From contig NZ_JACCKX010000001.1 in NCBI RefSeq assembly GCF_013423955.1, positions 2,418,001-2,482,000 of the forward strand: DNA of 64,000 nucleotides, read 5' to 3'. Position numbers and translations under genes: made by a program. This stretch comes from Ottowia beijingensis. GTDB taxonomy: Bacteria; Pseudomonadota; Gammaproteobacteria; Burkholderiales; Burkholderiaceae_C. Of the stretch, positions 25,060 to 43,600 are shown one piece after another; the first letter of the stretch is position 1, and each line of letters opens with the position of its first letter. Below the pieces are notes generated by a model. That model made no database searches and was not told the DNA's origin. It saw only the letters and a list, made by a program, of their open reading frames with translations.

Positions 25060-26877
25060 ATGCCCAACGCCTTCAACTTCGCCGCATCGCCCTTCGACAG
25101 CCTGACGCAGCAGGAGCAGCGCCTGGTGCGCAACCACGTGGACGTGGTGTACTTCCGCGCCGGCGAGGTGATCCTCGACGTCGGCACCGCGCCCACGCAC
25201 CTGTTCGTCGTCATCAAGGGCTACGTCGCCCAGTTCGATGGCGAGGAGCAGGCCGCCACCTACGGGCCCGACGACTGCTTTGACGGCCGCGGCCTGGTGG
25301 CCGGCAAGTCCAGCAGCCGCTTCGTCGCCGCCGAGGAGGTGGTGGCCTACGCGCTGGCGCACGCCACGGTGCAGGAGCTGATCGCCGCCAACGCCACGTT
25401 CGGGGCGCTGCTGTTCTCCGACATCGGCGCCAAGCTCAGCGCGGCCGGCCAGCGGCAGAGCGGCAACGAGCTGCAGGCGCTGAACATGGCGCGCGTCGAC
25501 CAGGCCTTCGTGCGGCCGGCGCACATGGTGGATGCGGCCACCGACATCGTCTCGGTGGTCAAGGTGTTCCAGCACGAGCGCACCACCAACGTGCTGGTGC
25601 AGGACGCCGCCACGCAGCCGCCGCGCCTGGGCATCTTCACCACCAATGCGCTGCAGCGCGCCATCCTGTCGGGCCGGCCGCTGGAGCAGATTCCGGTGGG
25701 CGAACTCAGCAACTGGTCGCTCATCAGCGTGCGCCCGTCCGACCAGGTGGGTGATGCGCTGGCCATCATGCTGCGCCACCACATCCACCGCGTGGTGGTG
25801 GCCGAAGGCGAACAGGTGCATGGCGTGCTGGAGGCGCTGGACGTGTTCAGCTTCCTCTCCAACCATTCGATGTTGATCACGCTGCGCATCAACGACGCGG
25901 ACAGCATCGACGAACTGGCCGAGGCGGCGGGGCAGGTCACCGGCATGATCGGCCGCCAGTTCCGCGGCGGCACGCGCGCGGGGCTGATCGCCAAGATGGT
26001 GCAGGACTTGAACGCACGCCTGTTCGACCGCGCCTGGCAGATCATCGCGCCGCCCGAGCTGGTGGCCAACGCGTGCCTGTTCGTCATGGGCAGCGAAGGG
26101 CGGGGCGAACAGCTGCTGAAGACCGACCAGGACAACGGCCTGATTCTGCGCGACGGCTACACGCCACCGGACGACCTGGCGGCCATCTGCCAGCGCTTTT
26201 CCGACACGCTGGCGCGCTTCGGCTACCCGCCGTGCCCGGGCGGCATCATGCTCAGCAACCCGGCCTGGCGCATGAGCGAGGCCGATTTCGCGCAGACCGC
26301 GCGCCGCTGGCTGGCCCTGCCCGAGCCCGACAGCCTGATGAACCTGGCCATCTTCATGGACGCGCACGCCGTCAGCGGCGACGCGCATCTGCTGGAAGGC
26401 GTGCGCGGCAGCCTGATGCAGATGGCCACCGACAACGACGCGCTGCTGGCGCGCTTTGCCAGCGCCATCGATCTGTTCAGCAGCAGCCAAGGCTGGTGGA
26501 ACCGGCTGCTGGGCGACGCGGCGCAGCAGATGAACCTGAAGAAGGAAGGCATCTTCCCGCTGGTGCACGGCGTGCGCAGCCTGGCGCTGGCAGCGCGCGT
26601 CACCGCCACCAGCACGGCCGAACGCATCGAGGCGCTGGTGCAGCGCGGCGACCTGAGCGCCCAGATGGGCCGCGAGCTGACCGAGAGCCTGCACTTCTTC
26701 ATGACGCTGCGGCTGCAGGCCGGCCTGGCCGAGCTCGACCGCCAGCAGCCGGTGAGCGGCGCGATGGACGTGAAGACGCTCAACACCTTCGAGCGCGACC
26801 TGCTGAAGGACACGCTGGACGTGGTGAAGCGCTTCAAGGTGCAGCTGCGGCACCGCTTCAAACTGGGTGCCTTGTGA
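25060..26877 (+). CDS. cNMP-binding/CBS/DUF294 nucleotidyltransferase-like protein, paralog 1
   Basis: A 605-residue multidomain regulator. Residues 1-125 form a cyclic-nucleotide-binding-like beta roll (FRAGEVILDVGTAPTHLFVVIKGYV). Residues 150-275 are a CBS pair (TTNVLVQDA; HHIHRVVVAEGEQVHGVLEALDV). The central domain (about 300-440) has the GlnD-like nucleotidyltransferase motif VMGSEGRGEQLLKTDQDNGL, with GS...E..L.TDQDN including the metal aspartates. The C-terminal DUF294_C helices end with ERDLLKDTLDVVKRFKVQLR. Proteins of this build are always found with acetate or solute:sodium symporters and DnaQ-like exonucleases, but the nucleotide substrate and target are unknown. The stop overlaps the exonuclease start (GTGA). 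A second paralog is at 38751-40596. Confidence 0.88.
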   Translation: MPNAFNFAASPFDSLTQQEQRLVRNHVDVVYFRAGEVILDVGTAPTHLFVVIKGYVAQFDGEEQAATYGPDDCFDGRGLVAGKSSSRFVAAEEVVAYALAHATVQELIAANATFGALLFSDIGAKLSAAGQRQSGNELQALNMARVDQAFVRPAHMVDAATDIVSVVKVFQHERTTNVLVQDAATQPPRLGIFTTNALQRAILSGRPLEQIPVGELSNWSLISVRPSDQVGDALAIMLRHHIHRVVVAEGEQVHGVLEALDVFSFLSNHSMLITLRINDADSIDELAEAAGQVTGMIGRQFRGGTRAGLIAKMVQDLNARLFDRAWQIIAPPELVANACLFVMGSEGRGEQLLKTDQDNGLILRDGYTPPDDLAAICQRFSDTLARFGYPPCPGGIMLSNPAWRMSEADFAQTARRWLALPEPDSLMNLAIFMDAHAVSGDAHLLEGVRGSLMQMATDNDALLARFASAIDLFSSSQGWWNRLLGDAAQQMNLKKEGIFPLVHGVRSLALAARVTATSTAERIEALVQRGDLSAQMGRELTESLHFFMTLRLQAGLAELDRQQPVSGAMDVKTLNTFERDLLKDTLDVVKRFKVQLRHRFKLGAL

Positions 26878-27518
26878 GCGGGTTGATCGACAGGCTGCGC
26901 CGCGGTTGGCAGCAGCGGCAACTGCGCGATTCCGAGTGGCGCTTTCTGGTCGACGCGCCGCCGCCCGGCGAATGGGTGGCGCTGGACTGCGAGACCACCG
27001 GCCTGAACCCGCGCAGCGACGAGATCATCGCCATCGGCGCCGTGCGCATCGTGGGCAACCGCGTGCTGACCAGCGAGCGGCTGGAGCTGCTGGTGCGGCC
27101 CGAGCACGGCGTGTCGGCCGAGAGCATCCGCGTGCACCGCCTGCGCGAGCAGGACGTGCAGGACGGCGTGCCGGCCGAGGAGGCCATGCGCCGCCTGCTG
27201 CACTTCATCGGCGCGCGGCCGCTGGTGGGCTACTACCTCGAGTTCGACGTGGCGATGATCAACCGCACGCTCAAGCGCACGCTGGGGCTGACGCTGCCGC
27301 AGGAGAAGATCGAGGTGTCGCGCCTGTACTACGACCACGTGTTCCAGCAGCTGCCGCCGCACAAGCAGCAGGAGAACACCGAGATCGACCTGCGCTTTGC
27401 CACCATCATGGATGCCCTGGGCCTGCCCACGCGCGAGGCCCACGATGCGCTGAACGACGCGGTGATGGCGGCGCTGGCCTTCATCAAGCTGCGGGTGTTG
27501 CGGGGTGAGGCGGGTTGA
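26874..27518 (+). CDS. DnaQ-like 3'-5' exonuclease (DEDDh)
   Basis: A 214-residue exonuclease domain protein from a GTG start overlapping the DUF294 stop. Exo I is [17 protein letters not shown] (D..E), Exo II is LVGYYLEFDVAMINRTL (D) and Exo III is HDALNDAVMAALAF (H....D). The four acidic residues plus His are complete, so it should be active. It is longer at the N-terminus (LIDRLRRGWQQRQLR) than polymerase III epsilon domains and has no polymerase-binding tail. It is coupled to the DUF294 gene and probably works with it in the acetate island. It may trim DNA or RNA, or hydrolyse a small nucleotide made or bound by its partner. Confidence 0.88.
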   Translation: MSGLIDRLRRGWQQRQLRDSEWRFLVDAPPPGEWVALDCETTGLNPRSDEIIAIGAVRIVGNRVLTSERLELLVRPEHGVSAESIRVHRLREQDVQDGVPAEEAMRRLLHFIGARPLVGYYLEFDVAMINRTLKRTLGLTLPQEKIEVSRLYYDHVFQQLPPHKQQENTEIDLRFATIMDALGLPTREAHDALNDAVMAALAFIKLRVLRGEAG

Positions 27519-27528
27519 TTCGGTTGCT

Positions 27529-27578
27529 ATGTTGTTAATAGCTGCTTGCGCTTGCTGGGCGGGCGCTAGAGCTTGAAA
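27529..27578. repeat. Repeat copy, AATAGCTGCTTGCGCTTG variant
   Basis: A further copy (GCTATGTTGTTAATAGCTGC, then TTGCGCTTGC and GCGGGCGCTAGAGCTTGAAA). It sits between the exonuclease stop and the terminator at 27587-27615. Confidence 0.6.
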
Positions 27579-27586
27579 TGACCATG

Positions 27587-27615
27587 AAAAAGCCGGACCC
27601 GAAGGTCCGGCTTTT
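27587..27615. terminator. Bidirectional rho-independent terminator
   Basis: AAAAAGCCGGACC, then a CGAA-type loop, then GGTCCGGCTTTT. A nine-base G/C-rich stem is flanked by A and T runs, so it can act on both strands. It separates the plus-strand DUF294-exonuclease pair (ending 27518) from the minus-strand symporter gene (ending 27646). Confidence 0.9.
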
Positions 27616-27645
27616 GCTTGCAGCGGCGGCCGAAGCCGCACGGCA

Positions 27646-29376
27646 TCAGTGGGCCGATGCCTTGGCGGCACCCAGGCCGGTTTCCGAGCGCACCTGCTGC
27701 GCCGGGAAGGCAGCGCGCTCCTGCTGCGCGTTCCTGCTCTTGTCGAGCACCGAGAACAGCCACACGCCGAAGAAGCCGATGGCCATGGAGAACAGCGCCG
27801 GCGAGGTGTAGGGGAACAGCGCCGAGCCCTTGGGGTTGCCCAGCGTGGCTTCCCACACCGAAGGCGACACGATGGTCAGCGCCACCGACGAAATCAGCCC
27901 CATGAAGCCGCCGATCACCGCGCCCTTGGTGGTGCAGTCCTTCCACAGCACCGACAGCAGCAGCACCGGGAAGTTGGCCGACGCCGCCACGGCGAACGCC
28001 AGCGACACCATGAAGGCGATGTTCTGGCGCTCGAACACGATGCCCAGCAGCACCGCGATGATGCCCAGCGCCAGCGTGGTGATGCGCGACACCTTCAGCT
28101 CGGCGGCCGAATCGGCCTTGCCCTTCTTGAACACCGTGGCGTACAGGTCGTGCGACACGGCCGAGGCGCCCGACAGCGTCAGCCCCGCCACCACCGCCAG
28201 GATGGTGGCGAAGGCCACGGCCGAGATGAAGCCGTAGAACACGTCGCCGCCCACGCTCTTGGCCACCAGCACCGCCGCCATGTTGGCCGTGCCGGCGCCG
28301 CCGTGGATGATGCCCTTGGAGGTGTCGGCGAATTCGGGGTTCGTCAGCACCAGGGTGATGGCGCCAAAGCCGATGATGAAGATCAGGATGTAGAAGTAGC
28401 CGATCCAGGTGGTGGCCCAGAACACCGACTTGCGCGCCTCCTTGGCGTTGGGCACGGTGAAGAAGCGCATCAGGATGTGCGGCAGGCCCAGCGTGCCGAA
28501 CATCAGCGCCATGCCGAAGCTGATGGCCGAGATCGGGTCCTTGATGAAGCCGCCCGGGCCCATGATGGCCAGGCCCGCCCGGGCCGCCGCCGTGGGGTCG
28601 GCGCCGCCGTTGGCCGCGATCTCGGTGCGCACGCGCACGCCGTCGGCGAACAGTGCCTCGGGGCTGAAGCCGTACTTGGCCATTACCATGAAGCCCATGA
28701 AGGTCACGCCCGACAGCAGCAGCACCGCCTTGATGATCTGCACCCAGGTGGTGGCCGTCATGCCGCCGAACAGCACGTACACCATCATCAGCACGCCGAC
28801 CAGCACCACGGCAATCCAGTAGTCCAGGCCGAACAGCAGCTTGATGAGCTGGCCCGCGCCGACCATCTGCGCAATCAGGTAGAACGCCACCACCACCAGC
28901 GTGCCGCTGGCCGCGAAGGCGCGCAGCGGCGCCTGCTGGAAGCGGTAGCCGGCCACGTCGGCAAAGGTGAACTTGCCCAGGTTGCGCAGGCGCTCGGCCA
29001 GCAGGAAGGTGAGGATGGGCCAGCCCACCAGGAAGCCGATGGAGTAGATCAGGCCGTCGTAGCCGTTGGCCATCACGGCCGCCGAGATGCCCAGGAACGA
29101 CGCCGCCGACATGTAGTCGCCCGCGATCGCCAGGCCGTTCTGGAAGCCGGTGATGCCGCCGCCCGCGGTATAGAAGTCGGCCGCCGACTTGGTGCGGCCC
29201 GCGGCCCACTTGGTGATGCCCAGCGTGGCCACCACGAAGGCCGTGAACATGATGATGGCGATCCAGTTGGTCGCCTGTTTGGCCGTGCTGCCGACGTCGC
29301 CGCCGGCGGCCTGCGCGATGCCCGCGGTGGTCAGGCCCAGCAGTGCCGCGATGAGGGTGTTGCGGGCGCGGCTCAT
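27646..29376 (-). CDS. actP: Cation/acetate symporter ActP
   Basis: A 576-residue sodium:solute symporter with about 13-14 membrane helices and a hydrophobic N-terminal segment. Landmarks of the ActP branch are [30 protein letters not shown]-like text (seen as [16 protein letters not shown] and [17 protein letters not shown]), [18 protein letters not shown] and [36 protein letters not shown] and [20 protein letters not shown] follow. It takes up acetate and other short acids. The start overlaps the stop of the DUF485 gene (ATGA), the standard order DUF485-actP. It ends against a shared terminator. Confidence 0.93.
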
Positions 29377-29681
29377 TTGGTGGCTTCCTCGATGATTTCG
29401 CGCGTGAGGCGGTCGAACTCGCCGTTGGCACGGCGCACGTACAGGCCGGTGATGACGATGGAGAACACGATCACCGCCATGCCGATGGGGATGCCGATGG
29501 TGGTCACGCCGGCGCCCATGGGCTTGGCGAGGAATTCCTTGTCGAAGGCAATCAGGCCGATGTAGCCGTAATAGACGACCAGCATCAGGATCGCCAGCGT
29601 CCAGCCGTAGCGGCTGCGCGTGCGCTTGAGTTGCTGGTACTTGGGGTTGCGCTGGATGCGCTCGACCATGGGGTCGCTCAT
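29373..29681 (-). CDS. DUF485 membrane protein
   Basis: A 102-residue protein with two transmembrane helices (around residues 26-45 and 60-82). The family motif is [20 protein letters not shown] at the N-terminal side of helix 1, and it continues with [22 protein letters not shown]485 proteins nearly always precede actP and are thought to assist the symporter. This one shares a four-base overlap with it. Upstream is the divergent DUF4212 gene, with a 284-bp regulatory region between them. Confidence 0.9.
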
Positions 29682-29965
29682 ATTTGTCTCCTCGTGTCAC
29701 ACCGGCTGGTGCCGATGCGGCCGCGATTCTGGGGAGAGGCTCTGACCAGCTCCTTACGTCAGGCGCGGTGCCTGCGGGCGTGTCGGCTATCGGGAACCTG
29801 TAAGTTCCATGTGCATGGAGCGTGCATTTCATGCAGCGGTCGAGGCACAGATTTCTAGGTGATTGCCCTTGGTTCCGATAGTCAGCGCCATCGCTGTAAG
29901 TTTTCAGAAAGTCAGTGAAAACTAGAGTTCACATCTGTTACCAAAATCTGAAGGAGACAACCCAC
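29682..29965. promoter_or_regulatory. Divergent control region between DUF485-actP and DUF4212-symporter
   Basis: A 284-bp spacer between two divergent transporter units. I see small inverted repeats (CATGTGCATGG, and TGCATGGAGCGTGCATTTCATGCA around 29811-29835), but no convincing sigma-70 or sigma-54 promoter pair. An AAGGAGA Shine-Dalgarno sequence at 29951-29957 serves the DUF4212 start. The region is A/T-richer than the neighbouring genes and is the natural target for the response circuit encoded at 32866-36034. Confidence 0.45.
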
Positions 29966-30232
29966 ATGGCAGAACGCAATGACAGTCAGGCCAGTGAGTA
30001 CTGGAGTGCCACGCTCAGGTTGCTGATCGGCATCCTGGTGATCTGGTTCGTGGTGCCGTTTCTGGGCGGCATCGTGTTCGCGGACTTGCTCAACAACATC
30101 AAGCTGGGCGGCTACCCGCTCGGCTTCTGGATCGCTCACCAGGGCGCCATCTACCTGTTCATCGTGCTGATCTTCTTCTACATCTGGAAGATGGGCGAGA
30201 TCGACCGTCGCTTCAACGTCGACGAGAAGTAA
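29966..30232 (+). CDS. DUF4212 small membrane subunit of a solute:sodium symporter
   Basis: An 88-residue protein with two hydrophobic segments (about residues 18-40 and 58-75). It has the DUF4212 pattern YWSATLRLLIGILVIWFVVPF, then GYPLGFWIAHQGAIYLFIVL and a charged tail ending RRFNVDEK. It is the usual small partner of VC_2705-type symporters, which start 25 bp downstream here. The role of DUF4212 (assembly or gating) is not established. A good Shine-Dalgarno sequence (AAGGAGA) precedes the ATG by 8 bases. Confidence 0.9.
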   Translation: MAERNDSQASEYWSATLRLLIGILVIWFVVPFLGGIVFADLLNNIKLGGYPLGFWIAHQGAIYLFIVLIFFYIWKMGEIDRRFNVDEK

Positions 30233-30257
30233 GAACCACCGAAGAGGACGGACGATC

Positions 30258-32068
30258 ATGGATCTGACCACCACCACCTACATCGTTGTCGGCTTGAGCT
30301 TCGCGCTCTACATCGGCATCGCCATCTGGGCGCGCGCCGGCTCGACCAGCGAGTTCTACGTCGCCGGCGGCGGCGTGCACCCCGTCACCAACGGCATGGC
30401 CACGGCGGCCGACTGGATGTCGGCTGCTTCCTTCATCTCCATGGCCGGCCTGATCGCCGGCATGGGCTACGGCGGCGGCCTGTTCCTGATGGGCTGGACC
30501 GGTGGCTACGTGCTGCTGGCCATGCTGCTGGCCCCGTATCTGCGCAAGTTCGGCAAGTTCACGGTGCCGCAGTTCATCGGCGACCGCTTCTACAGCAAGA
30601 CCGCCGCCACCATCGCCGTGGTCTGCCTGCTGACGGCCTCCATCACCTACATCATCGGCCAGATGACGGGCGTGGGCGTGGCCTTCTCGCGCTTCCTGGA
30701 GGTGTCCAACGCCACCGGCATCTACGTCGGCATGGCGCTGGTGTTCGTCTACGCCGTGTTCGGCGGCATGAAGGGCATCACCTACACGCAGGTGGCGCAG
30801 TACATCGTGCTGATCCTGGCCTACACGGTGCCGGCGGTGTTCATCTCGCTGCAACTCACCGGCAACCCGATTCCGCAGCTGGGCCTGGGCTCCAACCTGG
30901 TGGGAACCGACGTGTCGCTGCTGAGCAAGCTCGACCAGATCGTGTCCGACCTCGGCTTCGCCGAATACACCACATCCGTGCCGGGCAGCAAGCTCAACAT
31001 GTTCGTCTACACGCTGTCGCTGATGATCGGCACCGCCGGCCTGCCGCACGTGATCATGCGCTTCTTCACCGTGCCGTCGGTCAAGGACGCGCGCGTGTCC
31101 GCCGGCTGGGCGCTGATCTTCATCGCCGCGCTGTACACCGTGGCCCCCGCCGTGGGCGCCATGGCGCAGACCAACCTGATGCGCACCATCACGCCGGGCG
31201 TGGTGATGCAGAACGCCGACCCCTACGCACCGGAGGCGTCCATCCGCTACGACGAGCGTCCCGACTGGATGAAGCGCTGGGAAACCACCGGCCTGCTGAA
31301 GTTCGAGGATAAGAACGGCGACGGCCGCATCCAGTACTACAACGACAAGACCACCAACCCCGAGATGAAGGCCAAGTTCGACGCTGCCGGCTGGAAAGGC
31401 AACGAGCTGAACGTCAACGCCGACATCATGGTGATGGCCAACCCCGAGATCGCGCTGCTGCCCAACTGGGTGATCGCGCTGGTGGCGGCGGGCGGCCTGG
31501 CGGCGGCGCTGTCGACCGCGGCGGGGCTGCTGATGGCGATTTCGGCGGCGGTGTCGCACGACCTGATCAAGGGGTGTTCGTGCCCGACATCAGCGAGAAG
31601 AACGAACTGCTGGCCGGCAAGATATCCATGGCCGTGGCCATCGTCATCGCGGGCTGGCTGGGCTTGAACCCGCCAGGCTTCGCGGCGGGAACGGTGGCAC
31701 TGGCCTTCGGCATCGCAGCCAGCTCGCTGTTCCCGGCCATCATGATGGGCATCTTCAGCAAGGGCATGAACAAGGAAGGCGCCATCGCCGGCATGCTGGC
31801 GGGCCTGTTCGTGACGCTGGTGTACGTGTTCGCGCACAAGGGCCTGTTCTTTGTTCGCGGCACCGAGTTCACCGGCCTGATCGGTGGCCCCAACAGCTTC
31901 TTCGGCATCACGCCGGAGGCTTTCGGTGCCGTGGGCGCGGCGGTCAACTTCATCGTGGCGTTCATCGTCTCGAAGATGACCGCGCCGACGCCGCAGCACA
32001 TCCGTGACCTGGTCGAGGCGGTGCGCGTGCCGCGCGGCTCCAAGGCCATCACCGGCGCCGCACACTGA
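30258..32068 (+). CDS. Sodium:solute symporter, VC_2705 subfamily, frame broken once
   Basis: About 603 residues with a lost G in the run 31571-31574. Typical parts are the SEFYVAGGGVHPVTNGMATA loop, DWMSAASFISMAGLIAGMGY, FGKFTVPQFIGDRFYS, FGGMKGITYTQVAQYIVL and GTAGLPHVIMRFFTVPSVKDAR. A long polar loop near residue 315 (YAPEASIRYDERPDWMKRWE) is characteristic of VC_2705 symporters, and AISAAVSHDLIKG lies at the frame break. With DUF4212 it forms a second acetate or short-acid uptake system next to actP. A strong terminator follows the stop codon. Confidence 0.88.
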
Positions 32069-32078
32069 TGAGTCGCAT

Positions 32079-32126
32079 GCCGCCGGCACGCGGGCCCGAA
32101 TGGCCAGCGTGCCGGCGGCTGTTTTT
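32079..32126 (+). terminator. Rho-independent terminator after the DUF4212-symporter unit
   Basis: The stem GCCGCCGGCACGC (32079-32091) pairs with GCGTGCCGGCGGC (32107-32119), and TGTTTTT follows. The 13-base G/C stem starts 10 bases after the symporter stop codon. It isolates the transporter unit from the following sensor genes. Confidence 0.92.
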
Positions 32127-32149
32127 CTGAGCGAAGGTATCGTGTCGTC

Positions 32150-32503
32150 ATGGCTGTCAGTCTTGCGCTGAACTGGATTCTTTTTCTGGGGCTGTTCCCC
32201 ATCGCCTTCTACTGGCTGCGGCGCGCGTGGCGCATCCTCATCAAGCGCGACTTCTCCGAGGTCGCCCTCAAGTACGGCGAGGCGCCGCCCAACGCGGCCC
32301 GCTTCGCACCCTACGACGGCGTGCTGCACCTGCTGGCGGGCGCCACCTGCGTGTACGTGATCCTGGCCGTGGTGCTGACGGCGATGCCCTACAGCACCTG
32401 GACGGCCATCGCCGGCTCGACGATCTGGATCAAGCTCATGCTCGGCTTCGCGTTGTCGCGCCATGCCCATGCCAAGGCCAAGGCAGTTTCCCAGGGGCGC
32501 TGA
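32150..32503 (+). CDS. Small membrane protein of unknown function
   Basis: A 117-residue protein with two to three hydrophobic segments (about residues 3-20, 58-76 and perhaps 85-98) and a basic, Ala/Lys-rich tail. The stretch YWLRRAWRILIKRDFSEVAL between the first two helices is strongly basic, so that loop is probably cytoplasmic. It follows the terminator and opens the sensor region. I do not recognise the family. The reading frame has the high third-position GC of its neighbours, so it is likely real. Confidence 0.6.
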   Translation: MAVSLALNWILFLGLFPIAFYWLRRAWRILIKRDFSEVALKYGEAPPNAARFAPYDGVLHLLAGATCVYVILAVVLTAMPYSTWTAIAGSTIWIKLMLGFALSRHAHAKAKAVSQGR

Positions 32504-32598
32504 CGGCGCCGTTGATCCTCACCGCGCTCGGCGCCGCGCGACCGGGTTAGCGCCCCTGATGCCCGCGGCCGCGCGCAGGCGGGCGGGAGCAGGGTGAC

Positions 32599-32862
32599 AT
32601 GCGCGAGTCCAGGCGCTCGGGACGCTTGCTGGGCCTGTTCGCCGCGGGCTGGCTGCTGCTGAACTTCCCGCTCTTCAGCATCTGGGACCGTGACGAACTG
32701 GTGCATGGCTGGCCGCTGCTGCCGACCGCCGCCTTCGTGATCTGGCTGCTGCTGATCGTGGCGCTGGCCGTGCTGATGGAAACCGGCGGCACGGCAGCCA
32801 CCCCCGCCGGGCGACGACGCCGAGCAGCGCGGGCTGCCGCCGGACTGAGACACCCGGGCTGA
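32599..32862 (+). CDS. Small two-helix membrane protein preceding the sensor kinase
   Basis: An 87-residue protein with two hydrophobic helices (GRLLGLFAAGWLLLNFPLF and TAAFVIWLLLIVALAVLME). It ends four bases before the kinase ATG. Small proteins of this shape often precede symporter-like sensor kinases and may assist membrane insertion or sensing. That assignment is inferred from position. Its Arg-rich tail (about the last 20 residues) looks out of frame. A one-base change near 32801-32811 would give a tail ending GLPPD with a stop at 32848, so the C-terminus as written may be wrong. Confidence 0.6.
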   Translation: MRESRRSGRLLGLFAAGWLLLNFPLFSIWDRDELVHGWPLLPTAAFVIWLLLIVALAVLMETGGTAATPAGRRRRAARAAAGLRHPG

Positions 32863-32865
32863 GCC

Positions 32866-35656
<2,791 letters not shown>

Positions 35657-35660
<4 letters not shown>

Positions 35661-36034
35661 CACCCAAGAAACTGCTGGTGGCCGATGACGAACCCAACAT
35701 CGTCATCTCGCTGGAATACCTGATGAAGCGCGAGGGCTACGACGTGCTGGTGGCCACCGACGGCAACCAGGCGCTGGAGGCGATCCAGCGCGAGCAGCCC
35801 GCGCTGGTCCTGCTCGACGTGATGATGCCCGGCAAGACCGGCTTCGAGGTCTGCCAGGCGGTGCGTGCCGATCCGGCGCTGGACGGGGTGCGCATCCTCA
35901 TGCTCACGGCCAAGGGGCGCGAAACCGATGTCAGCAAGGGCCTGGCGCTGGGCGCCAACGCCTACATGACCAAGCCCTTCTCCACCCGCGAGCTGGTGCA
36001 GAAGGTGGCCGAGCTGCTGGAGGCCGCGCCTTGA
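35657..36034 (+). CDS. Single-domain response regulator (receiver only)
   Basis: 125 residues, all receiver domain. It has the acidic pair LLVADDEPN (Asp10, Asp11), the phospho-Asp54 in LVLLDVMMPGKTGFEV, the Thr/Ala of LTAKGRE and the Lys in AYMTKPFSTREL. There is no DNA-binding or enzyme domain. This differs from CrbR/CbrB, the usual partners of such kinases, which have DNA-binding output domains. Its gene overlaps both the kinase (ATGA) and the next gene (TTGA). The signal may therefore be passed to the exonuclease fusion protein encoded immediately downstream, or to an unlinked regulator. Confidence 0.92.
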
Positions 36035-38200
36035 GAAACCAGCGCCTGCTGATTCGGCCGCTGGTGCTGGTGGCGCTGGCGCTGGCGGTGCTGCTGGCCG
36101 TGGCAGTTGGCCTGGTCTACTTCACGCTGGACGCGCCGGGCCGCGCGCAGTTCGCCCGGTTGCTGGCGCCGCGCGCCGCGCTGCTGGTACTGGCCTGGGC
36201 GCTGGGCGTGGTGGCGGCCATGGCGGCGCTGCAGCGCTGGTGGGTGCCGCGCGTCAGCGCGCTGCCCGAGCTGGCCGAGCAGACGCGCGCCCTCGTCAAC
36301 GCCAGTGCGCCCCTGCAGCTGAAAGCGCGTGCGCAGGCCGACCAGCAGCCGCTGGCCGACGCGGTGAATGCACTGGCTGCGCAGCGCGATGCGTTGCGCG
36401 CCGACGTGGCGGCCGAGGTGGCGCGCGCCAGCGCCAGCGTGCGGCTGGAACGCAACCGCCTGGCGGCGCTGATGTCGGAGCTGACGCAGAGCGTGGTGGT
36501 GTGCAACCGCGATGGCCGCATCCTGCTCTACAACCAGCGTGCGCGCCGGCAGTTCCGCGTCCTGTCCGACGCGCCGCAGCTGGCCGACGGCGCCGAGCTG
36601 ATCGGCATCGGCCGCTCGATCTACGCCGTGTTCGACAAGAAGCTGGTGGCGCACGCGCTCGACAGCATCGGCCAGCGGCTGGCGCGCGGCGCCGCGCAGC
36701 CCTCGGCGCAGTTCGTGACGGCGACGCGCGGCGGGCAATTGCTGCGCGTGCAGGTGGCGCCGGTGACCGACACCGACGGCGGCGACGGCGCGCCAGGCAC
36801 GGCCGCCCTGGGCGGCTTCGTGCTGATGCTGGACAACATCACGCGCAGCTTCGAGGAAGAGACCGCGCGCGGCCAGCTGCTGCACGGCCTGACCGAGGGC
36901 AGCCGTGCCTCGCTCGCCAGCCTGCAGGCGGCGGTGGAGATGCTGGGTTACGACGACCTGGAGCCCGCCATGCGCGAGCGTTTCTTGGGCGTGCTGCGCG
37001 ACGAGGTGCGCACCCTGGCGGGCCGGGTGGACGAGGTGGCGCGCCAGTCGGCCGACAGCCTGCGCACGCGCTGGCCGCTGGAGGAGATGCAGGGGCCGAA
37101 TTTCTGGCGGTGGCGGCGCGCCAGGTGGGCGCGCAGTGCGGCGTGCCGGTGACGGCGGCGCCGGCCGATGCGCGGCTGTGGCTCAAGCTGGACAGCTTCT
37201 CGATGCTGCAGGCGCTGACCTACCTGGGCCAGCGCCTGGTGGACGAGTTCGCCGTGCGCGCGCTGACGCTGCGGCTGGCCGCGGCGGGCGCGCGGGCGCA
37301 GCTCGACCTGGTGTGGACCGGCCACGCCATGAGCACCGAGACCGTGATGAGCTGGGAGATGGACGCCATGCGCATCGGCGCCGAGACGCACCCGCTCTCG
37401 GTGCGGGACGTGGTGGAGCGGCACGACGCCGAGATGTGGTTCGAGCGCGACCGCGCGGCGCACCAGGCATTCTTCCGCTTCCTGCTGCCTCTGGCCAGCA
37501 GCGGCGACGAGGCCGCCGAGGGCCTGGCCGAGGTCGAAAGCCGGCCCGAGTTCTTCGACTTCGACCTGTTCGCGCAGGCCGACACCGACACGGCGCTGGA
37601 TGAGCGCCCGCTGGGCGAGCTGGTCTACACCGTCTTCGACACCGAGACCACGGGCCTCAACCCTCGGGCGGCGACGAGATCATCCAGATCGGCGCGGCGC
37701 GCGTGGTCAATGGCCGGCTGCTGCGGCAGGAGTCGTTCGAGCAGCTGGTTGATCCGGGGCGCGACATCCCGGCCGCGGGCATTCCCATCCATGGCATCAC
37801 GCCCGACATGGTGGTGGGCCAGCCGCGCATCGACGAGGTGCTGCCGGCCTTCCACCAGTTCGCGCAGGACACCGTGCTGGTGGCGCACAACGCGGCGTTC
37901 GACATGAAGTTCCTCCAGCTGCTGGAGCCGCGCACCGGCCTGCGCTTTCAACAGCCGGTGCTGGACACGCTGCTGCTGTCGGCCGTGGTGCACCCCAACC
38001 AGGAGTCGCACCGGCTGGAGGCCATCGCCGAGCGCTTCGGCATCACCGTGCTCGGCCGGCACACGGCGCTGGGCGACGCGGTGGTGACGGCCGAGGTGCT
38101 GCTCAAGCTGATTCCGCTGCTGAAAGACATGGGCATCGTCACCCTGGCGCAGGCGCGCGCGGCGGCGCAGCAGTCGTATTACGCGCGGTTGAAGTATTGA
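36031..38200 (+). CDS. Membrane-anchored PAS/kinase-like protein fused to DnaQ-type exonuclease, frame broken twice
   Basis: About 723 residues from a TTG start overlapping the response-regulator stop, after restoring one G (run 37092-37095) and one C (37661-37663). Two N-terminal transmembrane helices (residues 8-32 and 44-65) are followed by a HAMP-like and coiled region. Next is a PAS domain ([28 protein letters not shown]), then a region that resembles dimerisation and ATPase folds of kinases but lacks a clear phospho-His ([20 protein letters not shown]). A C-terminal DEDDh exonuclease completes the protein: Exo [12 protein letters not shown], Exo [14 protein letters not shown], Exo [18 protein letters not shown]. 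The catalytic residues are complete. A nuclease controlled by a membrane sensor module next to an acetate kinase/regulator pair is unusual and unexplained. Confidence 0.85.
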
Positions 38201-38373
38201 TAACGTTTTGCGTTCAAGACGATGCCCAATGACCGATGACCGCGGCTGGCACCGCATGACCAAGGACGAACGACGTCTTGGTCATTGGAGCGCAGCGAAG
38301 TCATTTGTCATTCGCCATGGTTGCTTGATGAGCAACCGGTCTCATTCCGTTTCCACCTCAAGACGTTAGCCAT

Positions 38374-38450
38374 CGTCATCCCGGCGAAAGCCGGGATCCA
38401 TGCGCTCGGCGCGCGCGTCGTCTGGATTCCGGCTTTCGCCGGAATGACGA
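38374..38450. repeat. CGGCGAAAGCCGG double-hairpin repeat
   Basis: CGTCATCCCGGCGAAAGCCG, GGATCC, a GC-rich loop, then GGATTCCGGCTTTCGCCGG and AATGACG. Each half is itself a hairpin and the halves are inverted to each other. This is a very widespread intergenic element type in proteobacteria. Only one copy is present in this window. Confidence 0.8.
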
Positions 38451-38492
38451 GCTTCATGTCGTTTCGATCGGGAAATGGAATCAGACAGCGTT

Positions 38493-38565
38493 GTGGGAGC
38501 GGGCTTGCCCGCGATGAGGCGTCTCGTCGCAATCAAGGCTTGATCGCGGGCAAGCCCGCTCCCAC
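38493..38565. repeat. REP-like long palindrome, copy 2
   Basis: GTGGGAGCGGGCTTGCCCGC, loop with GATGAGGCGTCTCGTCGCA, then GCGGGCAAGCCCGCTCCCAC. It is almost identical to the copy at 9791-9864, including the TCAGACAGCGTT flank and a similar right flank ending TGATGGTCAAGC versus GAGTGATCAAGC. The arms are perfect here. Confidence 0.85.
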
Positions 38566-38750
38566 ACAGCCGGTGCGATCCGCGCCTCGTCTGAGGCTTC
38601 TTGATGGTCAAGCATGATTGAAAGCAAATCCGCATGAGGCTGGGTGGGCGGATGTTTCCTGCTCTATGCTTGTAGGGAGTATGTGTGTGCAATGACCGTC
38701 AATAGGGCGCCGGCAGGTAGGTGCCTGGGGAGTATATGGGTGAAGCGGGC

Positions 38751-40596
38751 TCAGCCGCGTCCGCCGTAGTAGCGCTGCCCCAGCACCGCCTGCATCTGCT
38801 GCACCACGCCGAACGCGTCCTTCAGCGTGCCGCGCTCGAAGCTGGACAGCTCGTCCAGCCGCAGAAAGTTGTCGGGCGCCTGGCCGGCGGCGATCTGGCG
38901 CGTCTGGTGCGCGATGCGCAGCGCGCTGATGAACTCCAGCGCATCACCCAGGTCGCGCGCGGCCTGCGCGCTGACTTCGCCGCTCTGGGCCGAGGCGGCC
39001 AGCCGGTCCTGCGTGTTCACCGCATCCAGCCCGCCGGCCAGCGCGTAGTTGCGCGCCAGGTCGACGATGGGCACGATGCCGTTGTGCTTCAGGTCGATGG
39101 TGCCGCGGTGCTCGCCGCCGCGCGTGACGGCGATCTGCCCGAACAGGCCCAGCGGCGGCCGGTGCTTGAGCGCGTTAACCACCATGTGCGCCAGGAACAG
39201 GCTGTTGCCCTTGGTGCGCTGCAGCATGTCGCGCCGCAGGCCGTGCAGCAGCTCGGCGTGGCCGTGCACGGCGCGCAGGTCGAAGAACACGCAGGTCAGC
39301 ATCAGCGCCATGGGCTCGGGCTGATCGGTCCATTCGGCGAAATAGGCGTTCCAGCGGCTGCGCGGCTGGCGCCACTGGTCGGTCATGGCCATCATCTCGC
39401 CCGGGCAGTGCACGTAGCCGCAGGCGTCCAGTCCGTCGCAGACGAACTTGGAGAAGGCGCGGAAATACTCGCCATGCTGCGCCGGCCGGTAGTCGTCGGA
39501 CAGCACCAGGCAGTTGTCCTGGTCGGAGCGCGCCGTCTGCTCCATGCGCGCCTGCGAGCCGGCGGCCACCCAGCAGTAGTCCACCGGCGCCGGGCCCAGC
39601 TGTTGCTCGGCCAGCTGGATCAGGCGCACTGTGAAGGCGTCGGTGACCGAGGTCATGATGATGCCGGTGCTGTAGGCGCTGGTCTCGGCCTTGGCCAGGC
39701 TGCTCTGCAGGTCCTTCACGCGCAGGCTGCAGGCCACCAGGCCGGCCAGGTCGGGCTGGCGGTAGATGTCGCCGGTGAGGTACACCGCCGAGGTGCTTTG
39801 CTGCTGATTCAGGTCGGTGGCGGTCACCATGCCGGCCACGCGGGTGCCGTCGAGCACCGGCACGTGGTGGATGTTCTGCCGCGCCATCAGCACCATGGCC
39901 TCGAAGATGGACTGGTGCTTCTGCAGCGTCAGCGGCGCCAGCGTGGCGATGTCGGCCACCGGCCGCGCCGGGTCGACGCCGGCGGCCAGCACGCGCGTGC
40001 GCAGGTCGCGGTCGGTCACCAGGCCGAACAGCTGGTCGCCCTGCGTCAGCAGGATGGACGACACGCGCTCGTCGGCCATGCGGCGCGCGGCGTCGAGGAT
40101 GCTGTCGGCACGGTCGATCTGCACCGGCGCGCGCCTGATCAGGCTGCTGATCGGCGCCGTCATCACGTTGCCCGACGGCGCGGGGCGTTGGGCGCCGCTG
40201 CATTGGCGCTGCGCGGCAGCGTCGGCAACAGCATCGCCAGTACTGGCTGCGCCTGCGCCGCCTGCACCAGCGCCGCACTGTCGATGAACAGCACCTGGCT
40301 GGGCGCGACGGCCACCGCGTGCAGGGGTGGCCGGCATCGGTGGGATGCGCGCCGGCGCCGAACAGCTCGCCCGGCTGCAGCGGCCAGCGCCAGCCGGCCT
40401 CAGGGTCGGTCAGCGCCACGCTGCCGGCCAGCAGCCAGCCCAGGCGCTCGGGCAGCTCGCTTTCGGCCAGCACGATGTCGTCGGCTTGAAAGGCCTGCAC
40501 CTGCGCCTGGCTGGCCAGCGCCTGGCGCGTGCCGTCGGGCAGGGCGCCGAACACGCGGTGCGTCGTCATCAGGGCTTGTATTTCGGAAGCTTGCAT
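38751..40596 (-). CDS. cNMP-binding/CBS/DUF294 nucleotidyltransferase-like protein, paralog 2, frame broken twice
   Basis: About 615 residues from the ATG at 40594-40596, with lost bases at GGGG 40324-40327 and GGGG 40182-40185 (plus strand). The order is as in paralog 1: an N-terminal cNMP-like roll (FQADDIVLAESELPERLGWL; GELFGAG), a CBS pair (RVSSILLTQGDQLFGLVTDR; IHHVPVLDGTRVAGMVTATD), the nucleotidyltransferase motif GSQARMEQTARSDQDNCLVL with its metal aspartates, and DUF294_C helices ending FERGTLKDAFGVVQQ. It is divergent from uvrA across 87 bp and convergent with the exonuclease fusion gene. Two such proteins flanking one island suggest non-redundant partners for the two exonucleases. 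Confidence 0.85.
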
Positions 40597-40683
40597 CACA
40601 GATACTCTGGTTGAAGACCGAGCCGCACAGGGGCTGACAATGCCTGGCCCATTGTGGCAGAGCCCCCGCCATCCGAGCCCCGA

Positions 40684-43600
40684 ATGAACCCCAAGCCCAC
40701 CGACACCGGCCTGATCCGCATCCGCGGCGCGCGCCAGCACAACCTGAAGAACCTGGACCTCGACCTCCGCACCGGCGAGATGACGGTGGTCACAGGCGCC
40801 AGCGGCTCAGGCAAGTCCAGCCTGGTGTTCGACACGCTGTACGCCGAGGGGCAGCGCCGCTACGTCGAGACCTTCAGCGCCTACGCGCGCCAGTTCCTCG
40901 ACCGCATGGACAAGCCGGCGGTGGACAAGGTGGAGGGCGTGCCGCCGGCGATTGCCATCGACCAGACCAACCCGGTGCGCTCGTCGCGCTCGACGGTCGG
41001 CACGATGACGGAGCTGAACGACCACCTGAAGCTGCTGTTTGCGCGTGCGGGCCAGTTGTTCGACCGCGAGACAGCGCTGCCGGTGCGGCACGACAACGCG
41101 GATTCGATCTATGCGGAGATGCTGGCGCGCGCCGCCGCGGCCGGCGATCCCCGGCTTGTCGTCACCTTCGCCGTCGAACTGCCGGCCGGCACCAGCGCCG
41201 ACGAAGTGCAGCAATGGCTGTCCGCCAGCGGCTTCACGCGCGTGCAGGCGGAGCGCGAGCGCGAAGGAAAGAAAGTTCTGGACGTGGTGGCCGATCGCTT
41301 TCGCATCGCCGGCGCCGAGCGCGCGCGGGTAATCGAGGCGATCGAGGTCGCGCTCAAGCGTGGCGGCGGTCGCATGGGGGTATATTCGCTACCAAATCAG
41401 GAGCTATTGGCGCCCGATGGACGGGCGCCGGAGGCCGATTTGGCTCATAACCCGGCGTCGGTGCTGTGGAAGTTCTCCACCGGCCTGCACTGCCCCGAGA
41501 GCAATATCCGCTACGCCGACCCGATCCCGTCGATGTTCTCGTTCAACTCGGCCGTGGGCGCGTGCGACAGCTGCCGCGGGTTCGGGCGGGTGATCGGGGT
41601 TGACTGGGGCCTGGTGATTCCCGACGAGCGCCTGACGCTGCGCGCGGGCGCCGTCAAACCCATCCAGACACCGGCCTGGCGCGAGGCGCAGGACGACCTG
41701 ATGCGCCACGCCGAGGCCGCCGGCATCCCGCGCGACACGCCGTGGAACAAGCTCACGCCCGAGCAGAAGCACTGGGTGATCGAAGGCACGCCCAACTTCA
41801 AGGAAGGCAACTGGAACAAGCAGTGGTACGGCATCCGCCGCTTCTTCCAGTACCTGGAGAGCAAGGCGTACAAGATGCACATCCGCGTGCTGCTGTCGAA
41901 GTACCGCAGCTACACCACCTGCCCGGCGTGCGGCGGTGCGCGGCTGGAGCTGGAAAGCCTGCTGTGGCGCGTGGGCAGCAAGGCGGATGCCGATGCGGTG
42001 CTGCCGCCTTCGCAACGCTTCATGCCGGTGGGCGTGGGCTGGTCGCGCGCGCAGCTGGAAAGCCTGCCGGGCCTGAGCCTGCACGACCTGATGCTGCTGC
42101 CGTTGGAGCGGCTTCGGCGTTTCTTCGACGCGCTGGACGCCTCAACGCCCTCCCCGCTGGGGGAGGGTTGGGGTGGGGGCAAACCTCGCTTACCGTGGAC
42201 GCACGCAGCCCCTCACCCCAGCCCTCTCCCCAGAGGGGCGAGGGAGCCACAACCGAATCCGACGAGGCTGACGTCGCGTTCTTTCCCCCTCTCCCGCTGG
42301 CGGGAGAGGGCAGGGTGAGGGCGCGCGCAGCGCCGACGCCCAGGCCCTCAAGCTGATCCTCGACGAGATCGGCACGCGCCTGAAATACCTGTGCGAAGTC
42401 GGCATCGGCTACCTCACGCTCGACCGCCAGAGCCGCACCCTCAGCGGCGGCGAGGTGCAGCGCATCAACCTGACCACGGCACTCGGCACCTCGCTGGTCA
42501 ACACGCTGTTCGTGCTGGACGAGCCCAGCATCGGCCTGCACCCGCGCGACATGGACCGCATCACCCAGGCCATGCAGCGGCTCAAGAATGCCGGCAACAC
42601 GCTGGTGGTGGTGGAGCACGACCCCGCCGTGATGCTGGCTGCCGACCGCGTGCTCGACTTCGGCCCCGGTCCCGGCGCGCAGGGCGGGCGCATCGTGTTC
42701 GACGGCACGCCCGATGAACTGCGCAGTGCCGACACGCTGACCGGCGCCTACCTGGGCGGGCGCAAGTCCATCGGCCTCGGCTTCTCGCGGCTGGTGGCGG
42801 CCAACACGCCGCGCCTGATCCTCGAAGGCGCGACCGAGCACAACCTGAAGCACGTCAGCGTCGAATTTCCGCTGCAGCGTCTGGTCACCGTGACGGGCGT
42901 CAGCGGCTCGGGCAAGTCCACGCTGATCCAGGACGTGCTGGCGCCCGCGCTGCTGCGGCATTTCGGCAAGGCCACCGAATCACCCGGCGCGCACGACCGC
43001 CTGCTGGGCGCCGAACAACTGGCCGACGTGGTGTTCGTCGACCAGTCGCCCATCGGCAAGACGGCGCGCTCCAACCCTGTCAGCTACGTCGGTGCGTGGG
43101 ATGCGATCCGCTCCTGTTCGCCGCCGCGCCGCTCGCCCGGCAGCGCAGCTACACGGCGGCCAAGTTCAGCTTCAACAGCGGTGACGGGCGCTGCCCGACG
43201 TGCGGCGGCTCGGGCTTCGAGCATGTCGAGATGCAGTTCCTGAGCGACGTGTACCTGCGCTGCCCCGACTGCGACGGCAAGCGCTACCGGCCCGAAATTC
43301 TGGAGGTCACCATCGAGCGCCCTTTAAGAAAACTGGGGTCGGATTCCGATTTTCAGGGCGCAGCGGATCGCTTGTCCGCCGCCGCTGATGGGAAATCGGA
43401 ATCCGACCCCAATTTTCTGGCCCGCCGCACGCGGGCGCTCAACGTCGCCGACGTGCTCGACCTGACGGTCGCCGAGGCCGCGCAGTTGTTCGCGCAAGAC
43501 CGCGACGTGATCCGCGCCTTGCAGCCCATCGTCGATGTCGGCCTCGACTACGTGAAGCTCGGCCAGCCCGTGCCCACGCTCAGCGGCGGCGAGGCGCAGC

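What the first reader, a model, noticed from the sequence alone, without database searches (positions are those of the whole stretch)
25060..40596. Island pairing two nucleotidyltransferase-like proteins and two DEDDh exonucleases with acetate transport and sensing
Within 15.5 kb lie two cNMP/CBS/DUF294 proteins with intact GlnD-type nucleotidyltransferase motifs (GSEGRGEQ...TDQDN and GSQARMEQ...SDQDN) and two DnaQ-type exonucleases with complete DEDDh residues, one stand-alone and one fused to a membrane/PAS module. With them are ActP plus DUF485, a DUF4212 plus symporter pair, a symporter-linked histidine kinase and a receiver-only regulator. One DUF294-exonuclease pair overlaps as GTGA. Related sets exist in other proteobacteria, but to my knowledge no biochemical role for the nucleotidyltransferase/exonuclease pairing is known. 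One hypothesis is that the DUF294 proteins make or attach a nucleotide signal in response to acetate or membrane state and the exonucleases remove it. The alternative is that they only help regulate transporter mRNA or protein.
Basis: partly seen in the sequence, partly recalled or inferred. Interest (0 to 1): 0.75.

Follow-up and report, generated by a model that had tools for sequence, protein, structure and literature searches.

The report
Symporter-linked nucleotide writer and eraser enzymes
Next to bacterial uptake pumps for acetate-like acids sits a conserved pair of enzymes that probably attach and remove a nucleotide tag, and in many bacteria the remover is built into a dead sensor kinase that appears to be switched by a small signalling protein, an unusual kind of signal output.

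Summary
The island is real. Both strong DUF294 matches of this genome lie in it, each beside a DEDDh exonuclease. The fused exonuclease and several neighbours are frame-broken in this assembly but intact in relatives. The pairing is not chance: 71 of 77 full DUF294 genes from 149 other genomes of the phylum have such an exonuclease within 5 kb, against 0 of 20 GlnD-like control loci. Seven of 80 genomes of one family encode exonuclease and DUF294 as one polypeptide. The simple pair is in print as an operon of the CrbS/CrbR (MxtR/ErdR) regulon: in Pseudomonas putida the exonuclease mutant, like the actP-I mutant, is impaired on pyruvate; the DUF294 mutant is not. What I did not find in print is the second set: the exonuclease is the output domain of a degenerate histidine kinase (acidic residue in place of the phospho-histidine in 89 of 102), with a receiver-only regulator directly upstream in 73 of 96. 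Best reading: DUF294 nucleotidylates a transport protein, the exonuclease removes the tag, and phospho-receiver binding to the pseudokinase controls removal. The chemistry is unproven, and 16 of 54 fusions have no DUF294 within 5 kb.

The parts
25060..26877 (+). DUF294-A: cNMP-binding, CBS, GlnD/GlnE-type nucleotidyltransferase, helical DUF294_C domain; proposed nucleotide writer
   Evidence: Pfam; motif GSEGRGEQ...TDQDN plus third Asp434; NTase part of the model near DrrA and GlnE
26874..27518 (+). Exonuclease A, stand-alone DEDDh 3'-5' exonuclease; proposed eraser of DUF294-A; overlaps DUF294-A by GTGA
   Evidence: RNase_T E 2.9e-24; NCBIfam PRK09145 293.7 bits; overlap read
27646..29376 (-). 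ActP-type cation/acetate symporter (likely start at 29376, overlapping the DUF485 stop)
   Evidence: SSF E 4.4e-113; NCBIfam PRK09395.1 925 bits; start codon
29373..29681 (-). DUF485 small membrane protein
   Evidence: Pfam
29915..30232 (+). DUF4212 small symporter subunit
   Evidence: Pfam; TIGR03647
30258..32068 (+). VC_2705-family sodium/solute symporter, frame broken near 31571-31583
   Evidence: TIGR03648 637 bits
32150..32503 (+). 117-aa hydrophobic protein of no named family, found with the DUF4212-symporter and the fused exonuclease in some relatives
   Evidence: no Pfam or NCBIfam match; relatives
32866..35660 (+). SLC5-type sensor histidine kinase without receiver domain, frame broken near 33813
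   Evidence: HisKA and HATPase_c; relative L137 has SSF plus HisKA/HATPase_c and matches PDB 10ed, titled histidine kinase, at E 1.5e-71 over its membrane part
35657..36034 (+). Receiver-only response regulator, 125 aa; ATGA overlap with the kinase, TTGA overlap with the next gene
   Evidence: Response_reg E 1.4e-27; overlaps read
36031..38200 (+). Membrane/PAS/pseudo-histidine-kinase/DEDDh exonuclease fusion; two frame breaks in this assembly
38751..40596 (-). DUF294-B: second nucleotidyltransferase, frame broken near 40260-40320

Best explanation
Two related writer/eraser modules attached to sodium/solute symporters. Shown by linkage and fusion: DUF294 and a DEDDh exonuclease form one conserved unit, sometimes one polypeptide, often beside a symporter. 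Shown by sequence and fold: in the second module the exonuclease is the C-terminal domain of a membrane protein with a PAS domain and a degenerate histidine kinase core without the phospho-histidine, overlapping the gene of a receiver-only regulator, which overlaps that of an SLC5-type sensor kinase. Inferred: DUF294, informed by CBS and (where present) cNMP domains, nucleotidylates a protein of the transport system and lowers uptake; the exonuclease acts as a phosphodiesterase that removes the nucleotide and restores uptake. Inferred: the sensor kinase phosphorylates the receiver, which docks on the pseudokinase, as DivK does on DivL, and sets the eraser's activity. The output of this two-component system would then be a nuclease-fold enzyme, not a transcription factor.
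For: Exonuclease within 5 kb of 71 of 77 full DUF294 genes, 49 within 1 kb and all 49 on the same strand; symporter within 5 kb of 47 of 77; 0 of 20 GlnD-like control loci with any of these. Single polypeptides with exonuclease and DUF294 in 7 of 80 genomes, 4 genus codes. G, S, R, D, Q, D of the NTase motif in 153 of 153 DUF294 genes (151 distinct), third acid D in 149. DUF294-A model: Foldseek rank 1 DrrA, ranks 2 and 6 the two GlnE regions, TM-score by query length 0.35-0.39. Fusion: DEDDh in 103 of 103 (102 distinct), and in 29 of 29 from the surveys that did not use these motifs as bait; best PDB sequence match of its core is DivL; the model has PAS, helical hairpin, catalytic-like domain and exonuclease. 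The receiver is present for 16 of 17 DUF294 genes with fused exonuclease and 1 of 54 with stand-alone (the one, L099, also holds a divergent fusion); directly upstream of the fusion in 73 of 96; 76 receivers end within 6 residues of the domain and keep the DD, D and K residues. Sensors with their own receiver: 0 of 7 with the fusion. Four genomes with the fusion but no adjacent receiver lack the sensor anywhere, 0 of 4. [quoted passage not shown]
Against: I found no biochemistry for any of these proteins. No DEDDh enzyme that removes a nucleotide from a protein is known to me (recalled). The fusion has no adjacent receiver in 23 of 96, so the receiver is not obligatory. 23 of 50 stand-alone exonucleases have Glu at the second-motif Asp, and 2 of 50 have lost other catalytic residues. 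30 of 77 DUF294 genes have no symporter within 5 kb, so the target may not be a transporter everywhere. A same-genus genome (G164, L023) keeps sensor, receiver and pseudokinase but has lost most of the fused exonuclease domain, and has no second strong DUF294. By sequence alone the NTase part of DUF294-A matches no nucleotidyltransferase in the PDB. The correlation of DUF294 and exonuclease distances was not corrected for species history. The P. putida exonuclease is described as a separate gene, so its genetics do not test the pseudokinase form.
Confidence: 0.4

Rival explanations
1. RNA-level control: the DUF294 enzyme adds nucleotides to RNA 3' ends and the exonuclease trims or degrades transporter or central-carbon mRNAs.
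For: Exonuclease domain is closest to DNA/RNA 3'-5' exonucleases such as PolC, DnaQ, RNase T; the published authors proposed mRNA decay.
Against: NTase part of the DUF294-A model is nearest to protein AMP transferases; loss of the exonuclease resembles loss of the transporter, not gain.
Confidence: 0.25
2. Nucleotide messenger: DUF294 makes a small nucleotide signal and the exonuclease destroys it.
For: DEDDh enzymes can degrade very short oligonucleotides (recalled); CBS and cNMP domains sense nucleotides (family knowledge; domains).
Against: Nearest folds are protein-modifying. I looked only for families found in the window, so an unseen effector gene is not excluded.
Confidence: 0.12
3. The receiver does not act on the pseudokinase-exonuclease but serves as phosphate sink or feeds an unlinked transcription factor; gene linkage reflects shared regulation.
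For: The fusion exists without a nearby receiver in 23 of 96; other targets of the receiver were not tested.
Against: Receiver presence tracks the fusion rather than DUF294 or symporters, 16 of 17 against 1 of 54; gene overlaps in the window; the core resembles DivL, a receiver-regulated pseudokinase (role recalled and from the abstract).
Confidence: 0.2
4. Coincidence or genome-region artefact.
For: The assembly has several frame breaks.
Against: The arrangement recurs across the surveyed DUF294 loci and the named fusion loci; control loci 0 of 20.
Confidence: 0.01

Closest known systems
P. putida PP_0354/PP_0353 and P. aeruginosa PA3233/PA3232 with PA3234 (ActP homologue) and PA3235
   Same: CBS/DUF294-type protein plus RNase_T-family exonuclease as an operon in P. 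putida, homologues next to actP-yjcH in P. aeruginosa, under MxtR/ErdR (CrbS/CrbR) control (PMC9927547 sections 7-8; PMC9765439 passages). Which of PA3232 and PA3233 is which is recalled
   Different: Separate exonuclease gene; no pseudokinase fusion or receiver-only regulator is described in what I read
CrbS/CrbR and RpuS/RpuR SLC5/STAC two-component systems
   Same: SLC5-type transporter domain fused to a histidine kinase; linked to acetate or pyruvate use (PMC5715377, PMC9100948 passages)
   Different: Sensor here has no receiver domain, and the partner is a 125-aa receiver without DNA-binding domain, instead of a LuxR-type regulator
DivL/DivK
   Same: Degenerate histidine kinase without the phospho-histidine, partner of a response regulator; best PDB sequence match of the core
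   Different: Here an exonuclease domain is fused at the C terminus, and Glu/Asp stands where the DivL chain has Tyr (alignment; counts)
GlnE and GlnD nucleotidyltransferases
   Same: NTase motif and helical domain; GlnE among the best structural matches
   Different: No HD domain (GlnD) or second NTase domain (GlnE) found; cNMP and CBS input domains; separate or fused DEDDh partner

Membership tests
DUF294 nucleotidyltransferase (PF03445/PF10335) | GS..R.E....DQD motif, third acid and DUF294_C domain | tested here: met
   for both window genes; motif G, S, R, D, Q, D in 153 of 153 genes (151 distinct), E in 148, third acid D in 149
GlnD | HD uridylyl-removing domain and ACT domains (recalled) | tested here: not met
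   No HD or ACT domain at E<=0.001 (DUF294-A) or E<=1 (DUF294-B without its broken N-terminal part)
DEDDh exonuclease | Asp, Glu, Asp, His, Asp active-site residues | tested here: met
   Window exonuclease A; 103 of 103 fused relatives (74 found with DEDDh peptide patterns, the other 29 not); 23 of 50 stand-alone relatives have Glu at the second-motif Asp
DEDDh exonuclease | Nuclease activity on nucleic acid | not testable with these tools
   Needs purified protein
CrbS/CrbR | SLC5-type domain fused to a histidine kinase | tested here: met
   (intact relative L137; window frame is broken; L094 gave no SSF match at E<=1)
CrbS/CrbR | STAC linker domain | not tested
   No STAC model was looked for by name
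CrbS/CrbR | Hybrid kinase with its own receiver | tested here: not met
   No receiver in the window kinase C-terminal part or in L137 and L094
CrbS/CrbR | LuxR-family DNA-binding regulator as partner | tested here: not met
   Adjacent regulator is receiver-only, 125 aa; an unlinked CrbR was not searched for
DivL-like pseudo-histidine kinase | Kinase core without phospho-acceptor His | tested here: met
   Glu 80, Asp 9, His 1, gap 4, other 8 of 102 distinct; DivL best match
DivL-like pseudo-histidine kinase | Binds a receiver-only regulator | not testable with these tools
   Only gene linkage, 73 of 96
MNT-HEPN toxin-antitoxin | HEPN RNase motif in the helical domain | not tested
   PMC3710099 (passage) lists GlnD/GlnE/DUF294_C as lacking it

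The most novel reading that the evidence does not exclude
A two-component system whose phosphorylated receiver directly switches a nuclease-fold enzyme through a dead histidine kinase, and that enzyme erases a nucleotide tag written by a DUF294 transferase on the solute-uptake machinery: reversible nucleotidylation of transport with a DEDDh eraser.
Probability: 0.26. Interest if true: 0.87.

Novelty: new variant of a known kind. Interest (0 to 1): 0.62.

Why it matters
[quoted passage not shown] NtrC-type for CbrB, recalled). Here a widespread variant has no DNA-binding partner beside it and is instead tied to a pseudokinase with a nuclease domain. If the model holds it gives a function to DUF294, found as 77 full-length genes in 54 of 149 other genomes of the phylum, a new chemistry for DEDDh enzymes, and a direct post-translational control of organic-acid uptake. 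One double mutant in a laboratory strain would separate the main models.

Tried and rejected
Chance neighbourhood: rejected by the survey and the control loci. Defence system: PADLOC matches only generic DEDDh, PDC-S48 and exonuclease-effector models, and none for the two DUF294 proteins. Ordinary CrbS/CrbR: rejected for this set by the missing receiver in the kinase and the receiver-only partner. Pfam search of the fusion gave no HisKA or HATPase_c at E<=1; the profile against the PDB did find kinases. Real pseudogenes as cause of the broken frames: less likely than assembly indels, since four neighbouring genes are broken, but the same-genus genome G164 shows that the fused exonuclease can truly be lost. 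Papers that match the string 'DUF294' inside 'DUF2946' are unrelated. Library searches for a pseudokinase-exonuclease or receiver-exonuclease system gave nothing relevant in the listings. Distance correlation between DUF294 and exonuclease (r 0.69 for 63 stand-alone, 0.60 for 74 fused; best of 999 permutations 0.14 and 0.13) is reported but not relied on, as species history was not removed and two duplicate loci were in the set; the partner label changes 17 times on the DUF294 tree and 6 times on the exonuclease tree (shuffles: at least 43).
Full report
What is there. Reading the window gives eleven genes between 25060 and 40596: DUF294-A and exonuclease A, overlapping as GTGA; DUF485 and ActP on the other strand, overlapping by four bases if ActP starts at 29376; DUF4212, a VC_2705-family symporter and an unnamed 117-aa protein; an SLC5-type sensor kinase, a 125-aa receiver-only regulator and a membrane/PAS/exonuclease protein, overlapping as ATGA and TTGA; and DUF294-B on the minus strand. 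Four genes are frame-broken here (symporter, sensor kinase, fusion, DUF294-B), most likely from assembly indels in a genome scored 89% complete with 5.2% contamination. The genome has four PF03445 matches; the two strong ones are both in the island. It has five RNase_T matches, two in the island.

Is the pairing more than chance? PF03445 was searched in 150 genomes of the window's phylum, its own included. The listing has 79 rows above 110 bits: two from the window's own genome and 77 from 54 others (my count). These 77 genes lie in 73 stretches, all fetched. With profiles built from the window's proteins, a related exonuclease lies within 5 kb of 71 of 77, within 1 kb of 49 and then always on the same strand; a sodium/solute symporter within 5 kb of 47; DUF485 of 22; DUF4212 of 23. 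Of the six without exonuclease, two (L043, L123) have the downstream side of DUF294 nearly cut off by a contig end, and L089 has the membrane part of the fusion without a recognised exonuclease. As controls I took 20 of the weak PF03445 matches (25-37 bits, frames of about 900-1100 aa), which I take to be GlnD without having checked; none has any of these neighbours. From the density of RNase_T in the window's genome about 1% would be expected (my arithmetic). In one family of the phylum, 7 of 80 genomes (4 genus codes; among them G012, which led me there) carry exonuclease and DUF294 domains in one frame; in G220 the frame ends just before the end of the match. For G012 Pfam shows RNase_T, two CBS, DUF294 and DUF294_C. 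This is the strongest sign that both act on one thing.

Two kinds of eraser. Of the 71, 17 are fused to the membrane/PAS protein and 54 are not; the 54 include the G012 fusion to DUF294 and some loci with divergent forms (L037, L039, L044, L084, L099) with low scores for the membrane part. In 103 single-frame fusion proteins (102 distinct) the DEDDh residues are complete in 103. 74 of these came from a scan that used two of the motifs as bait, but the other 29 did not, and they too are complete, 29 of 29. In 50 stand-alone relatives, the first-motif Asp and Glu, the His and the last Asp are kept in 48 each, but the second-motif Asp is Asp in 26 and Glu in 23, an unexplained change that may mark an altered substrate.

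The fusion contains a dead histidine kinase. The profile of 14 fusions matches DEDDh exonucleases and also histidine kinases in the PDB; for the segment between PAS and exonuclease the best match is DivL (E 1.9e-7), aligned so that the DivL Tyr faces a Glu. That column is Glu in 80, Asp in 9, a gap in 4 and His in 1 of 102. The AlphaFold model of the Tepidicella xavieri protein (mean pLDDT 82, pTM 0.38, so domain placement is uncertain) shows PAS, a two-helix hairpin, a catalytic-like domain and the exonuclease. Foldseek finds WalK-type and other sensor kinases and the kinase-regulator pair ThkA/TrrA for the first part and PolC/DnaQ for the second.

The receiver goes with the fusion. A matching receiver occurs in the stretch for 16 of 17 DUF294 genes with fused exonuclease (L101 lacks it) and 1 of 54 with the other kind; that one is L099, which holds a divergent fusion. 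Where at least 1 kb upstream is held, it lies directly upstream of the fusion in 73 of 96 (50 of 69 named and 23 of 28 unnamed before one duplicate was removed). The 76 receivers found this way end within six residues of the domain and keep Asp, Asp, Asp and Lys; their N-terminal side was checked only in the window. An SLC5-type sensor lies within 5 kb of 39 of 54 fusions and DUF294 within 5 kb of 38 of 54. Among DUF294-anchored loci, seven SLC5-type sensors have their own receiver and none of these has the fusion. Eleven show no receiver: seven have the fusion, two have a divergent relative of it (L084, L099), and two run to the end of the fetched stretch (L073, L075). Four genomes with the fusion but without an adjacent receiver have no SLC5-type sensor anywhere (0 of 4 at E<=1e-20) and only background receivers (35-47% identity); two genomes with the sensor have the receiver at 76% and 61%. 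One of the four is only 74% complete. So sensor and receiver appear to come and go together as an input cassette to the fusion. Gene order differs, for example sensor-receiver-fusion in L137 and receiver-fusion-sensor in L094, while receiver and fusion stay adjacent.

Results against. The fusion lacks DUF294 within 5 kb in 16 of 54, so a DUF294 product cannot be its only substrate unless the gene lies elsewhere, which I did not test. The receiver is missing beside 23 of 96. The symporter is missing within 5 kb of 30 of 77 DUF294 genes.

The two modules in the window. In the same-genus genome G164 the fetched island lacks DUF4212, the second symporter, the 117-aa protein, most of the fused exonuclease domain and DUF294-B, while DUF294-A, exonuclease A, ActP, DUF485, sensor, receiver and the pseudokinase remain. 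G164 has one strong DUF294 in the whole genome; it has one DUF4212 match, more distant and 2.4 Mb away (63 bits). In other genomes DUF4212, symporter, 117-aa protein, fusion and DUF294 occur as a set without sensor and receiver (L028, L035, L036; L169 is the same locus as L035). This supports DUF294-B plus fused exonuclease plus the second symporter as one unit, and DUF294-A plus exonuclease A plus ActP as the other.

What DUF294 probably does. The motif G, S, R, D, Q, D is in 153 of 153 genes (151 distinct) and the third Asp in 149. The DUF294-A model (mean pLDDT 86, pTM 0.63) has as Foldseek rank 1 DrrA and as ranks 2 and 6 the two regions of GlnE, with TM-scores by query length of 0.35-0.39. 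These are protein AMP transferases or removers (recalled). Apart from a second GlnE chain, the other matches among the 50 shown look like cNMP- and CBS-domain proteins by title. A sequence search of the PDB found CBS and cyclic-nucleotide-binding relatives and a few chance-level rows, but no nucleotidyltransferase by name. This favours a protein target over RNA, but only by fold.

Published work. [quoted passage not shown] the authors suggest mRNA decay. They cite transposon data by Rand et al. (not seen) in which actP-I and PP_0353 matter at 5 mM acetate. PMC5715377 (passages): Pflu5625, with cAMP-binding, CBS and nucleotidyltransferase domains, is in the CrbS/R regulon and its mutant had no phenotype. 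PMC9765439 (passages): PA3232-PA3235 rise about 16-fold on propionate, PA3233-PA3235 fall twofold after propionate addition, and a PA3234 mutant grows normally on propionate. PMC9100948 (passages): both SLC5/STAC systems of Sinorhizobium fredii have LuxR-type regulators. PMC9430884 (abstract and outline): DivL is called a pseudo-histidine kinase, and a single-domain receiver, Osp, binds the CckA transmitter. PMC3710099 (passages): DUF294_C belongs to the helical domains of this superfamily. I found no paper on the pseudokinase-exonuclease fusion or on fused exonuclease-DUF294 (open-access library only).

How it most likely works. If DUF294 writes an inhibitory tag and the exonuclease removes it, then losing the eraser leaves the transporter off, like losing the transporter, and losing the writer does nothing visible. 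That is the published pattern. The model predicts that deleting the writer rescues the eraser mutant. The pseudokinase form would add control of the eraser by an SLC5-type sensor through the receiver. Shown: linkage, fusion, residues, folds. Inferred: substrate, direction, receiver docking.

Verdict. The simple pair is known; the pseudokinase-exonuclease output with a receiver-only regulator is a new variant, not described in what I could search. By judgement: about 0.95 that DUF294 and exonuclease work together, about 0.55 that the receiver acts on the pseudokinase, about 0.4 for the whole writer/eraser explanation (0.42 before I counted the fusions without a nearby DUF294; the novel case likewise went from 0.28 to 0.26).

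Noticed in passing
window 38492-38566 and 38373-38450: Two palindromic intergenic repeats between the fused exonuclease and DUF294-B. A query built on the first (with an approximated spacer) matches 40 places in this genome, the number scored of 207 candidates, at 87-93% identity on the better strand.
   Followed up: partly
window 31571-31583, 33813, 37095-37104, 37664-37667, 40260-40320: Frame breaks in neighbouring genes that are intact in relatives, suggesting indel errors in the assembly.
   Followed up: partly
L051, L078, L079, L082, L162, L164, L165, L166: Loci with two DUF294 genes, sometimes divergent with one exonuclease each (L078, L079, L082), sometimes a short DUF294 in tandem with a long one.
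   Followed up: no
L152, L156 and 14 other loci listed: Pseudokinase-exonuclease fusions without a DUF294 within 5 kb, in L152 and L156 still with sensor and receiver.
   Followed up: no
L030:13527-14627 and L075:6829-7524: Stand-alone exonucleases of this family that have lost first-motif acidic residues while still next to DUF294.
   Followed up: no
stand-alone exonuclease relatives: 23 of 50 have Glu in place of the second-motif Asp, mostly in the context H...[IL]E..F.
   Followed up: partly
window 32150-32503: A 117-aa hydrophobic protein of no named family that accompanies the DUF4212-symporter and the fused exonuclease in several genomes.
   Followed up: partly
window 40654-42318 and 43096-45297: A UvrA-like gene (identified by eye, no family search) next to DUF294-B; its first frame ends in low-complexity sequence near 42200. 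The same-genus genome has the same gene directly after the truncated fusion (L023).
   Followed up: no
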